Shown piece after piece: positions 17,081 through 21,339 of a DNA stretch of 36,622 nt (position 1 is the first letter of the stretch; each line of letters begins with the position of its first letter). Under the pieces are notes generated by a model. It was not told the origin of the DNA and searched no databases. It saw nothing but the letters and a program-made list of their open reading frames with translations. The stretch comes from Bacteroidales bacterium (lineage in GTDB: Bacteria > Bacteroidota > Bacteroidia > Bacteroidales > Azobacteroidaceae). Both the position numbers and the translations under genes were made by a program. Where the stretch lies: the NCBI GenBank assembly GCA_003851245.1, contig BHEP01000027.1:1-36622 (forward strand), written 5' to 3'.

Positions 17081-17476
17081 GGGGTTGACTGGTTTTGACA
17101 GCGGGAAGAAGTGATTTGTAAGCATGCAGTGCGTTGTTGGCTGGCACTATAATCTAGGACAACAAAATTTCAACTGGCGAAGATAACTACGCTCTTGCTG
17201 CTTAATCGAATTATAGTAGATAAAGCTTAATTCTGGCACTAGGTGCCGGAACGAGATATCACCCGGAAGCTCTGGCTTCGAAGCAATCCGAATTAGGTGG
17301 TACAGCAATATCGAAGATAGCTTAAAGTAAGCCTCGGGCTTTGAGCGAAATTAAGAGGATAAGGTTGGTGTAGGTGGCTTCGGTCTTGCACCAATTCGAA
17401 AACGAAGGCGAAGATAAGCATGTAGAAAGCAGGTTAGTTCCTCGTTTGGACGAGGGTTCGAGTCCCTCCAACTCCA
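17081..17476 (+). ncRNA. ssrA: tmRNA (10Sa RNA)
   Basis: tmRNA rescues stalled ribosomes by acting first as an alanine tRNA and then as a messenger for a degradation tag. The 5' end GGGGTTG pairs with CAACTCC at 17469-17475 as the acceptor stem (one G-U pair). A T arm with TTCGAGTCCC lies near 17456-17465. The tag frame at 17176-17205 reads Gly-Glu-Asp-Asn-Tyr-Ala-Leu-Ala-Ala then TAA, close to the Bacteroidales tags. CCA is not encoded after the discriminator A at 17476. Transcription is from the element at 17059. The 3' end is the probable integration site of the prophage that follows. Confidence 0.95.
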
Positions 17477-17529
17477 CAATAAAGGCTGATTATCAGCAAG
17501 TTATAAAAACCGTACACGCAAATGTACAC
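17469..17529 (+). other. Probable prophage attachment region (left junction)
   Basis: The 3' end of ssrA passes directly into prophage sequence. Just past it are a 13-base palindrome GCTGATTATCAGC (17485-17497) and two direct copies of GTACAC (17512-17517 and 17524-17529) spaced 12 bases apart, start to start, which could be integrase arm sites. The core should be a piece of the ssrA 3' end, duplicated at the far prophage end, which is outside this window. This is inferred from gene order and from the common use of ssrA 3' ends by integrases. Confidence 0.5.
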
Positions 17530-18272: not shown

Positions 18273-18851
18273 TTATATGTTTTTGATAGATTCAAGGCGA
18301 TTCAACCAACCTTTCAAGAACCGTTTGTTGGTATATTTAAGCAATTCATTTTCGGTCGCTTTGCGCCTAATTTTTCGTTCATACTTTGCAATGCTGCTTT
18401 CTGTTATCTCATTGAGAAAATCGACACGTGCTTTGTGAATGGCTTCAAACAATTGGTTTGGGTCTGCAAAATTGACGGCGGACAGCGTTTTGTTGCCAAC
18501 TATTCCATCAGCTTGCACCCCAAGTACTCTTTGTGGAATGACAATACCATGCTTGCCTGAACACCAAACCCAATCAACCAAAATATTCGCAACTTTTTGA
18601 CTTTGGATGTGGTCAGCTTTCCACTTGTCCCAATAATGTGGTTTCAATACCCTGTTCATAACATCATCGTTGGTAATCAACTTTAAATCTTGAACGTCAA
18701 TATCGCCATCACCATTTTTGTCATATCCAACTTGTCGCCATGTGCCAATTGTTACACCTTTATTGGTTGCACCACCAGCATCTGCTGGGTCGTTCACAAA
18801 TCCACCCTCCCATTTAAGAATAAAGGGTAATAATAATTTAACATTTGCCAT
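18273..18851 (-). CDS. Endolysin, glycoside hydrolase family 108 muramidase
   Basis: This enzyme should cut peptidoglycan glycan strands at the end of the phage cycle. The 192 residues show the GH108 signature [20 protein letters not shown], in which Glu15 is the expected catalytic acid, followed by GVTIGTW. A 12-residue EF-hand-like loop, [12 protein letters not shown] (44-55), has Asp/Asn at the calcium positions and suggests calcium binding near the active site; such an insert occurs in other Bacteroidetes members. The second half ([19 protein letters not shown]) is the peptidoglycan-binding part typical of this family. No signal peptide is seen, so export must depend on the holin. The start overlaps the holin gene by 14 bases. 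Confidence 0.92.
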
Positions 18852-19320
18852 TTTTGTTTCCTTTAGTTTTTTCTTCTTTCAAAAAATCGCTTAATCCGGG
18901 TATTTTATTAACCCATTCAACAGCAAGTATATAGTGCATGAACTTGAGGAAGCGATTCTCAGGGAAAAGAATTAGTATATTTTCTAGGTTACTTACACAT
19001 TCAAACCATGTAGCTGACCAAACGGCAACATTTAGTATGCTCATAAAAGTGTCAACTTTTTTTAAAGACAAACCTAGCAGAACTATTACAGCGAACGTCC
19101 CAAGGTAGCAAAAAGCCTTAGCAAACCCCCAACGTGCCTTACTGCTTTGAAATCCTTTGCCTTGCTTCATAGATGCAAGAAATCCAGTAATAAAATCTGA
19201 AATAAAGAAGAATATAAAAAGTACAGCAATGCCAAGTAATTCGTGAGAATATGCCAACACTGCACCTATTATATAAATTAACCAACTGTATACAATCGGC
19301 AGTATTTTATCTGTACACAT
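18838..19320 (-). CDS. Phage holin, toxin-secretion/phage-lysis holin family
   Basis: The holin forms lesions in the inner membrane at a set time and lets the endolysin reach the cell wall. The 160 residues have about four hydrophobic segments (near 7-23, 28-49, 66-86 and 90-108), the [11 protein letters not shown] motif with the family Asp-x-x-Thr-Gly pattern, and a charged, basic C-terminal tail ([13 protein letters not shown]). Overlap with the GH108 gene (14 bases) and its place before it make the lysis role likely. Confidence 0.87.
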
Positions 19321-19705
19321 AATTTGAAAAGTCTTTAACCAACATTGTTTCTACATCTTCTGTAAAAATTAAATACTCTTTATATTTATCAACAGCGGTT
19401 ATATCAACTTTGACTCCCAAAACATGTTTGTTGTAGGAGTTAACAAGCTTTAATTCTGCCGATTCGTCAACAACTGACCGAATGATAGCTTTTTTCAACA
19501 TTGGTTTTGTAAGCGCATCCCAAATACGTATTTCGCAACAAGTCCAACCAATTTTGACTTGTTTCTTTTGCCCCTCAAGGATACCCATTTTAGATTCTAT
19601 GTTGAATCGATAGATGTTAGAGCCGTCATTATCTCTTTCAAACACAGATGGCTTGCCATGCACAAGGTCACAATTTGCGTTTGGCGCTATTGAATTTAAT
19701 TCCAT
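19307..19705 (-). CDS. Conserved phage protein between receptor-binding protein and holin, unknown
   Basis: From the ATG at 19705 the protein has 132 residues, starting MELNSIAPNANCDLVHGKPS. No membrane segment or known motif is seen. It has one Cys pair (WTCCEIRI). A GTG start at 19750 would add 15 residues and overlap the stop of the preceding gene, but the inner ATG has an A-rich leader and a more natural N terminus. Its end overlaps the holin start by 14 bases. Its place behind the receptor-binding protein gene suggests a tail-fibre assembly or attachment role, which is only a guess. Confidence 0.75.
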   Translation of the reverse strand: MELNSIAPNANCDLVHGKPSVFERDNDGSNIYRFNIESKMGILEGQKKQVKIGWTCCEIRIWDALTKPMLKKAIIRSVVDESAELKLVNSYNKHVLGVKVDITAVDKYKEYLIFTEDVETMLVKDFSNYVYR

Positions 19706-19746
19706 AAGAAATTTTTTTTTGAATTTTAGACATTGAATTTTTTGAA

Positions 19747-21045
19747 TCACAAAATTTGCACCACCTCAGGAATAAAGCAAAGCCTAGAACCCATGTAGGG
19801 ATAAAGACTTGATTCAGTACTATTTATAGCTACGCATGCTAGCCCTGCATCTGCACCACCATATAACACACCACCACCAAAAGATGGACTTAATTCATAT
19901 ACACCGCTTGAGGGTGTGTCTGTATAGAATATATCACAGAAATATGTGGTTGAACCTGCACCTACTGTTAAGGGTACTATTTCACCATATTCACCCAAAA
20001 TAATTTCCTTGACATACCCAACGGCTCGTGGTAAGTATCCACGCAATTCATAATTTGTAATGCCTGAACTTGTATAGTTGGCAGGGTTGTCACAAACATA
20101 AAATTCTGATACTCCCTTGTCTGAATCAGCATATGCCATACATTTACAACCATCTGTCCACTTCCATAGATGGCCGAAAATATTTTCGACCCCCCGATAT
20201 GATGGAACATTTGTTGTTCCTATTTCACCGTATTCGAGGGGCATAGTGTATGTCACAATTCCCGTCTTGTTTCCAAGTTTGTTTGTAGTTCCGCAAGGAA
20301 TACAGGATATACTGGTAGAGCTCAAATTTGTAACGCCATTACTCAAGCCTCCCTGACGGTACCCATTACTTGTCAATTGCGCATTGAAGTTGTCTTGTGA
20401 GTTGAAATTGGCATATTCCACGGCATAAAGCCACCATAATTTACGGTGAATATGATAGGTGTTGCAATTCCATTCAACTGAACCACGATTTCGGGCATAC
20501 TTACGAAAATCGGTTAGAGAAATGTTCGTTGCAGGCTTACCAAGAAATGTTTTGCCACCAAAATCGTGTATTTCCGAATTATTGCCACCTCTGAAAGCAG
20601 CAGTTTTGTTTACAACGCAAGCAAGCTTGCTTGTTGCTCGCTCAACGGTTGCTTCGTATGCAGAAACATAGTCTTTTGACCACTTAATAAATCCGGGCAA
20701 TGCTTTGTCAGACATCAAGCAACGGCGTTTATTTCCATCTGCTTCAAATCTAACGTAGGTGTCAGGCAATTCAACCATCACCATTCCGTGCGAACCGTCA
20801 AGGTTTGCAGCTGTCGAATTGTCACGCAAGGTCGAATTATTGGCATCCAAATAATAATTTACCTTTCCGTCATCCGTTAATATGCAACGCCGCATCCTTG
20901 ATTGAACTGGTAATGATTTGTGCAATTCATCTTTACCTATACGGGTTAGTTTAGGATTGGAAACGGTGATATCCCATTCCACCCCGTAAAAATCATCGAA
21001 AGCAAATTGGGATTTAATTTGCCCCATTCCTATTAAAAGACCCAT
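19747..21045 (-). CDS. C-type-lectin-fold receptor-binding protein, DGR-target type
   Basis: The protein has 432 residues. The C-terminal two-thirds has the formylglycine-enzyme-like C-type lectin pattern of proteins diversified by retroelements: LWWLYAVEYANFNSQ (203-217), IPCGTTNKLGNKTG (249-262), YRGVENIFGHLWKWTDG (283-299), GYVKEIILGEYGEI (343-356), GAGSTTYFCD and a final GGVLYGG...MGSRLCF block (391-424) that matches the place and style of a variable repeat. Such proteins sit at the tail tip of Bacteroides phages and bind cell surface ligands. The N-terminal 120 residues would anchor it to the tail. No reverse transcriptase, accessory gene or template repeat is seen in this window. It lies between tail genes and the lysis cassette. 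Confidence 0.85.
   Translation of the reverse strand: MGLLIGMGQIKSQFAFDDFYGVEWDITVSNPKLTRIGKDELHKSLPVQSRMRRCILTDDGKVNYYLDANNSTLRDNSTAANLDGSHGMVMVELPDTYVRFEADGNKRRCLMSDKALPGFIKWSKDYVSAYEATVERATSKLACVVNKTAAFRGGNNSEIHDFGGKTFLGKPATNISLTDFRKYARNRGSVEWNCNTYHIHRKLWWLYAVEYANFNSQDNFNAQLTSNGYRQGGLSNGVTNLSSTSISCIPCGTTNKLGNKTGIVTYTMPLEYGEIGTTNVPSYRGVENIFGHLWKWTDGCKCMAYADSDKGVSEFYVCDNPANYTSSGITNYELRGYLPRAVGYVKEIILGEYGEIVPLTVGAGSTTYFCDIFYTDTPSSGVYELSPSFGGGVLYGGADAGLACVAINSTESSLYPYMGSRLCFIPEVVQIL
19774..19896 (-). other. Putative DGR variable region (VR)
   Basis: These bases encode about residues 384-424 of the receptor-binding protein and end at the GSRLCF motif. In known DGR targets this is the stretch rewritten by adenine-directed mutagenesis from a template repeat. 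The call rests on the protein motif and position only. The matching template repeat, which would prove it, is not in the window. Confidence 0.55.
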
Positions 21046-21063
21046 AATATAATTGTTTAATCG

Positions 21064-21339
21064 TTAATACCCCCATTTAAGATTCAAATCTGACAATGAA
21101 GTTTGTTTCACCACCTTGACAATCTCAGGATTCCATCCGACTTCAAAAGTTGTTTCTACAAAATCATCATCTTGCATTCCAGCAAGTTGTATTTGCAAAA
21201 TTACAGGTTGCAAACCGTCATTTTTGATATTAAAACATTGTCCATCTGTCAATGAGAAATCATTACTTTGTAAGTTTTCAATAACTCCCATTCTTCCTAT
21301 TTGGGCTGATACCATTTCGCCAGACCTTGTTGTATTCAT
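21064..21339 (-). CDS. Small conserved protein upstream of the DGR-type target, unknown
   Basis: The 91 residues start MNTTRSGEMVSAQIGRMGVI and show alternating hydrophobic stretches (QPVILQIQLAGM, DFVETTFEVGWNPEIV) suggesting a small beta-sandwich. It has no membrane segment and no known catalytic motif. It lies 18 bases upstream of the receptor-binding gene, so the two are probably made together. A role as fibre adaptor or folding aid is inference. The 108-base gap on its other side holds AT-rich palindromes. Confidence 0.75.
   Translation of the reverse strand: MNTTRSGEMVSAQIGRMGVIENLQSNDFSLTDGQCFNIKNDGLQPVILQIQLAGMQDDDFVETTFEVGWNPEIVKVVKQTSLSDLNLKWGY

What the first reader, a model, noticed from the sequence alone, without database searches (positions are those of the whole stretch)
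19747..21045. DGR-type receptor-binding protein with no reverse transcriptase or template repeat in view
The protein has the C-type-lectin pattern and the terminal GSRLCF block seen in targets of diversity-generating retroelements in Bacteroides phages. DGR targets normally lie within a few kilobases of a reverse transcriptase, an accessory gene and a template repeat. Downstream here there are only a small gene and the lysis cassette up to ssrA, and upstream only tail genes. Either the retroelement acts from a distant part of the prophage or the chromosome, or this target was left frozen after loss of its machinery. Both would be informative about host-range evolution.
Basis: partly seen in the sequence, partly recalled or inferred. 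Interest (0 to 1): 0.75.

Follow-up and report, generated by a model that had tools for sequence, protein, structure and literature searches.

The report
Frozen hypermutation target with enzyme fossil
A prophage tail protein, predicted to bind the phage's host, belongs to a family whose genes are normally rewritten by a neighbouring reverse transcriptase, but here only the last 31 codons of that enzyme remain beside the gene and no template or other copy of the enzyme was found in the assembled genome, so a deletion has likely frozen it.

Summary
The 432-aa ORF at 19747-21045 (-) belongs to a tail-protein family (phrog_5302) that in most relatives is the target of a diversity-generating retroelement (DGR). 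Of 85 related loci with at least 1.4 kb past the target stop, 75 have a DGR reverse transcriptase (RT) downstream. In 68 distinct variable-repeat/template-repeat (VR/TR) pairs, 1256 of 1306 mismatches lie at template A.

The window has neither at that place. Behind the target lies a fossil: 96 nt (19668-19763, -) reading WCKFCDSKNSMSKIQKKISYGIKFNSAKRKL*, the RT's C-terminal tail (82 of 96 nt identical to L007), overlapping the next gene by the same 38 nt as in its nearest relatives. An RT profile finds this fossil and nothing else in the 2.94-Mb assembly.

So about 1.27 kb (TR plus about 310 RT codons) was most likely deleted. The target stays open; its last codons are former RT DNA. Its VR scaffold has left the template consensus (12 of 23 positions kept; 119 relatives average 97%). 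Ten other loci (nine distinct) also lack RT. RT loss in DGRs is already in print.

The parts
19747..21045 (-). Orphan DGR target, 432 aa, phrog_5302 tail protein, predicted receptor binder
19774..19893 (-). Former variable repeat (residues 385-424)
   Evidence: codon alignment to relatives' templates; VR/TR pairs in relatives
19769..19791 (-). 3' end of the VR, GGTTCTAGGCTTTGCTTTATTCC, one base different from L004; where the homing-initiation site would lie (inferred)
19668..19763 (-). Fossil: last 31 codons and stop of the DGR reverse transcriptase, in another frame than the target
19763..19774 (-). Deletion junction: end of target VR joined to RT tail (exact base not resolved)
   Evidence: comparison with L004, L007, L048
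19307..19705 (-). 132-aa gene (phrog_11557), start overlaps the RT fossil by 38 nt; in relatives this gene follows the RT
21064..21339 (-). 91-aa gene upstream of the target (phrog_26422)
18838..19320 (-). Holin (PF05105)
18273..18851 (-). Endolysin (GH108)
17081..17477 (+). tmRNA gene at the prophage end

Best explanation
This is an orphan DGR target: the last 31 codons of the retroelement's reverse transcriptase still sit against its 3' end, and a deletion of about 1.27 kb likely removed the template repeat and the rest of that enzyme. SHOWN: the RT-tail fossil, its frame and its 38-nt overlap with the next gene; no other RT match and no TR match in the assembly; an RT at this place in most relatives; the open target ORF whose last codons are former RT DNA; a VR scaffold that departs from the relatives' templates. 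INFERRED: in the ancestor the RT copied TR RNA with errors at A and the cDNA overwrote the VR, so the receptor-binding surface was reshuffled. The deletion ended that, and the protein now carries one fixed variant that changes only by ordinary mutation, recombination and selection. The deletion probably stopped where it did because the last 38 nt of the RT gene are also the start of the 132-aa gene.
For: (1) Fossil: tblastn with the L007 RT gives 71% over 31 aa, E 2.8e-9. 82 of 96 nt are identical to L007; the overlap with the next gene is 38 nt, as in the nearest relatives L004-L007 and L048. Score 117 against mean 30.4, maximum 50 in 60 dinucleotide shuffles. A profile of 10 RTs finds one place in 2.94 Mb, this one, E 2.7e-4. 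(2) No RVT_1 match in the genome at E up to 0.001; no second VR copy; no paralogue; no match to the L007 TR beyond a 22-nt piece at E 0.1. (3) 75 of 85 informative related loci have an RT downstream. The window groups with 6 RT-bearing rows in a supported clade (100/96), so absence is best read as loss. (4) Past DGR action in the family: 1256 of 1306 mismatches in 68 distinct VR/TR pairs are at template A, A being 26% of template bases. In the window 11 of 11 template AAT/TAT codons end in a pyrimidine, against 214 of 384 codons in the rest of the gene, p 0.0016; if the window's one extra codon is placed otherwise it is 10 of 11. (5) No templating now: 12 of 23 VR scaffold residues kept, lowest of 120, others' mean 0.97. 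Non-A template positions changed 36 of 86 against the L004 TR, versus 5-9 of 86 in the seven RT-bearing relatives compared with that TR.
Against: The genome is a draft (118 contigs). Terminase and portal of a relative gave no match and only a MuF fragment on another contig did, so the upstream half of the prophage is unseen and an RT there is not strictly excluded. The fossil is less changed than the VR scaffold: 8 of 58 non-overlap nt against L007 versus 34 of 87 non-A VR positions, p 0.0013; on conserved columns 4 of 29 versus 27 of 69, p 0.017. Neutral drift after the deletion alone therefore does not explain the VR: a divergent template before the loss, or selection on the VR, must be added, or the fossil is held by its place at the start of the next gene. 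Between more distant RT-bearing relatives, too, non-A changes reach 22 of 82 and 23 of 85, so scaffold change alone does not prove loss. Receptor binding is inferred from family and fold, not shown.
Confidence: 0.88

Rival explanations
1. The target is still rewritten by a DGR RT encoded elsewhere, on the unassembled half of the prophage or supplied by another phage.
For: The upstream half of the prophage was not found. The 3' end of the VR is nearly unchanged. L093, L104 and L111 show TR without RT in their records.
Against: No RT or TR in the assembly. Each of the 22 RT-bearing records has one RT, and it lies downstream of the target. The fossil shows that the RT of this locus is gone. The VR scaffold departs from the relatives' templates.
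Confidence: 0.06
2. Assembly artefact: TR and RT exist but were skipped when contigs were built.
For: Repeats such as VR/TR can break or collapse assemblies; no reads were available here.
Against: A VR/TR collapse would join VR to TR, not the target's end to the RT's last codons, and no long repeat is shared by the two joined points (sequences). The scaffold change and changes at conserved places of the RT tail, 4 of 29 columns, are not explained by an artefact.
Confidence: 0.03
3. The VR was exchanged, or its template had already diverged, before the cassette was lost, so the present VR is not the product of freezing.
For: The VR scaffold is more changed than the RT fossil (p 0.0013 and 0.017), and the change starts at the VR border: residue 384 matches the consensus, 385-388 do not.
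Against: No protein with this VR scaffold was found (29 candidates). Compatible with the main reading: it concerns order, not loss.
Confidence: 0.35
4. The locus never had its own DGR; an RT tail arrived with the 132-aa gene by recombination.
For: The RT tail overlaps that gene and could travel with it.
Against: The window sits inside an RT-bearing clade, its VR keeps the pyrimidine pattern of template-A codons, and the gene order matches intact relatives apart from the missing block and the missing 138-aa gene.
Confidence: 0.03

Closest known systems
Intact DGR cassettes of Bacteroidota phages and prophages (e.g. L007, L048 Culturomica sp., L051 Bacteroides pyogenes)
   Same: Same target family, same order target - (TR - RT) - 128/132-aa gene - lysis genes; VR at the target's C-terminus
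   Different: TR and RT body missing here; the 138-aa gene that follows in most close relatives is missing too; VR scaffold departed from the template
Incomplete DGR cassettes of Epsilon and Alpha crAss-like phages (PMC11054128, PMC12386605; passages seen)
   Same: The authors report RT genes fragmented or deleted in some Epsilonunovirus members while the receptor-binding protein is conserved
   Different: Different phage group; the passages seen give no RT fossil joined to the target and no measure of VR scaffold decay
Cyanobacterial variable-protein paralogue all3226 (PMC7517822; passages seen)
   Same: Remnant TR-VR homology without RT; the authors suggest removal of diversification components once a good variant is selected
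   Different: Dispersed duplicate without RT pseudogene; here the original locus with an RT fossil
TaqVP, Thermus aquaticus DGR variable protein (PDB 5vf4)
   Different: About 10% sequence identity; not shown on the window's own model

Membership tests
Functional DGR | Intact reverse transcriptase | tested here: not met
   Only a 31-codon tail fossil in the assembly; unassembled half of the prophage not tested
Functional DGR | Template repeat matching the VR except at A | tested here: not met
Functional DGR | VR changes directed by template A | tested here: inconclusive
   No own TR to compare. 11 of 11 template-A codons keep a third-position pyrimidine, but non-A positions changed too (36 of 86)
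Functional DGR | Accessory gene such as Avd | not tested
   No search for it was run
phrog_5302 tail protein (a DGR target family by its relatives) | Sequence match over the protein | tested here: met
   E 1.1e-113, residues 15-428
C-type-lectin/FGE-type fold of DGR targets | Fold match to a solved DGR variable protein | tested here: inconclusive
Decayed (orphan) DGR | Target kept, RT and TR lost, remnant at the ancestral place | tested here: met
Phage receptor-binding protein | Binds the host surface | not testable with these tools
   Inferred from family, fold of a relative and position

The most novel reading that the evidence does not exclude
Phages of this family repeatedly fix one receptor-binding variant by losing their hypermutation cassette, in at least two cases (window, L103) by a deletion that leaves only the RT's tail, and once freed from the template the former variable region evolves under strong selection, faster than the RT fossil beside it: a natural time series from young orphans with an intact scaffold (L103 4 of 72, L118 7 of 72, L108 8 of 72 non-A changes) to the window (36 of 86).
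Probability: 0.25. Interest if true: 0.65.

Novelty: new member of a known kind. Interest (0 to 1): 0.5.

Why it matters
DGRs are mostly found through their RT, so targets that outlived the machinery are easily missed. Here the loss leaves a readable scar, and the same tail family shows RT absence in several branches. That makes a question testable: what happens to a hypervariable binding surface after hypermutation stops, and is stopping it a repeated route to a fixed host range?

Tried and rejected

138-aa gene as a DGR accessory: no match in the window's genome (a search without positive control) and no tblastn hit in the window, but many distant RT-bearing relatives have no hit either, so no link is claimed.

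RT-tail remnants in other orphans: clear in L103 (159, shuffle maximum 40); not significant in L085 (43, shuffle maximum 48) or in L088, L096, L108, L115, L118 (60 shuffles each).

Dating the loss: the fossil has 4 of 29 conserved columns changed against a mean of 0.69, maximum 3, in 32 RT-bearing relatives; too short for a date. In that script the relatives' VR maximum of 41 of 69 is probably one wrongly anchored row, which inflates their mean of 2.97. The ungapped window numbers (38 of 86 against L004) are replaced by the gap-corrected ones; the L062 row (52 of 69) looks mis-anchored and is not used.

Rows dropped: L060, L089, L092, L109 and L114 were left out of the tree for low target coverage, and L021, L067, L078, L084, L098 and L112 stand in it as unknown because their contigs end early. 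The 96 loci include near-copies of one phage from both collections (such as L013 and L051). Related loci were the best hits of capped searches (one search kept 80 of 97).

Full report
What was checked. The ORF at 19747-21045 (-) is real, 432 aa, ending in the GSRLCF block. It is a phage tail protein of phrog_5302; 4034 homologues with E up to 0.001 were found among 7996 scored candidates, the best listed one 71% identical. The window is contig C27 of a 2.94-Mb, 118-contig, 99.68%-complete assembly. The prophage runs on the minus strand from beside the tmRNA gene (17081-17477) to the right end of the window, which cuts it.

Relatives carry DGRs. Searches of IMG/VR and of genome contigs gave 96 related loci, near-copies included. 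I compared each target's 3' end with the rest of its locus. In 68 distinct VR/TR pairs (76 loci with a TR of 98 nt or more, of 97 sources including the window), 1256 of 1306 mismatches lie at template A, while A makes up 26% of the template. Of 85 loci with at least 1400 nt past the target stop, 75 have an RT by tblastn. The order is target, TR, RT (about 343 aa, RVT_1), a 128-aa gene, usually a 138-aa gene, then lysis genes. RVT_1 was found in 22 of 24 records of the first IMG/VR set; of the other two, the L021 contig ends inside the target and the L022 contig ends 752 nt behind its stop.

The window lost the cassette and kept a scar. No TR was found. tblastn with a relative's RT hit the target's 3' end. 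Read in another frame, 19668-19763 (-) gives WCKFCDSKNSMSKIQKKISYGIKFNSAKRKL*, against WCKYCDSINLMSKIQKTIPYEIKFTRAKRKV* in L007: 71% over 31 aa by tblastn, E 2.8e-9; 82 of 96 nt identical; score 117 against at most 50 in 60 shuffles. The last 38 nt overlap the start of the 132-aa gene, as in the nearest intact relatives. The target's last codons lie in this former RT DNA. In L004-L007 and L048 about 1.27 kb separates the two joined points (positions). A profile of 10 RTs finds this fossil and nothing else in the genome (E 2.7e-4). RVT_1 finds nothing, and neither the window VR nor the L007 TR finds a template.

The variable region is a former VR. Aligned to the template codons, 11 of 11 AAT/TAT codons end in a pyrimidine in the window (background 214 of 384; p 0.0016). 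The window has one extra codon (TTA) that the alignment sets opposite a gap; placed opposite a template AAT instead, the count is 10 of 11. The scaffold that the template dictates has changed: 12 of 23 conserved residues kept, against a mean of 97% in 119 relatives, the lowest of 120, while 243 of 281 conserved positions elsewhere are kept (Fisher p 0.0002). At nucleotide level 36 of 86 non-A template positions differ from the L004 TR, against 5-9 of 86 in the seven RT-bearing relatives compared with that TR; two controls between more distant RT-bearing loci reached 22 of 82 and 23 of 85. A word search over 5.8 billion proteins found no other protein with this C-terminus (29 candidates).

A result that complicates the simple story. 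If the VR only drifted after the deletion, the RT fossil beside it should have drifted as much. It has not: 8 of 58 non-overlap nt differ from L007 against 34 of 87 non-A VR positions (p 0.0013), and on conserved columns 4 of 29 against 27 of 69 (p 0.017). Either the lineage's template had already diverged, or the VR was under selection, or the fossil is held back by its position at the start of the next gene. I cannot decide between these.

RT absence recurs. Ten of 85 informative loci have no RT hit near the target (L085, L088, L093, L096, L103, L104, L108, L111, L115, L118; L093 and L104 have identical targets), and RVT_1 is absent from their whole records, which may be fragments. On a target tree without the VR this label needs 9 changes, at least 8 on well-supported branches; a count of changes does not tell gains from losses. 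L103, next to RT-bearing L099, also keeps an RT tail directly behind its target (E 1e-5; score 159 against a shuffle maximum of 40), an independent parallel. L093/L104 and L111 keep a TR without RT, L118 a 35-nt piece of one. Non-A changes are few in L103 (4 of 72), L118 (7 of 72) and L108 (8 of 72) against their neighbours' templates, as expected for young losses; they are more in L085 (27 of 80), L096 (34 of 77) and L115 (43 of 83), whose nearest templates are distant.

Prior art. I saw passages, not whole papers. PMC11054128: the RT gene is fragmented or deleted in some Epsilonunovirus crAss-like phages. PMC12386605: Alpha and Epsilon phages hold both complete cassettes and fragments. PMC7517822: a variable protein with remnant TR-VR homology and no RT, removal after selection suggested. 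PMC3521204: truncated and strongly mutated RTs. PMC8867640: a crAss-like tail collar target also conserved in phages that lack DGRs. PMC8008677: a Quimbyvirus RT spread over three frames still seems active, so interrupted RT frames are not proof of loss. So RT loss is known. In the four listings and the passages seen I met no RT fossil fused to its target and no measure of scaffold decay; supplements and most subscription papers were not seen.

Limits. Draft genome; upstream half of the prophage not seen (only a MuF fragment on C72; these searches had no positive control); no reads; receptor binding and mutagenic homing are inferred from the family.

Noticed in passing
G000:C72:1-1200 (L134): A truncated MuF-like phage gene lies just before a near-copy of the sequence that ends the window's prophage beside the tmRNA gene (ORF with MLKSSFYESWTSFFSLKQKKHLNLGAFVY), probably a second, collapsed prophage remnant.
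   Followed up: partly
window 36622 (right end): The window ends inside the prophage head genes; a relative's terminase and portal have no match in the assembly.
   Followed up: partly
relatives, e.g. L049:11075-11488: A conserved 138-aa gene without Pfam match follows the 128-aa gene in most close RT-bearing relatives, but gives no hit in the window or in many distant RT-bearing relatives.
   Followed up: partly
L062, L072, L082, L083: RT frames interrupted by frameshifts or stops although TR and VR are present: possible early decay, programmed frameshift or sequencing error.
   Followed up: no
L093, L104, L111: TR and VR present but no RVT_1 match in the whole record: candidates for supply in trans or recent loss.
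   Followed up: no
P0043, P0106, P0047, P0041, P0002: Homologues with the next lowest VR scaffold conservation (17 to 19 of 23): further orphan candidates, genomic context not available.
   Followed up: no
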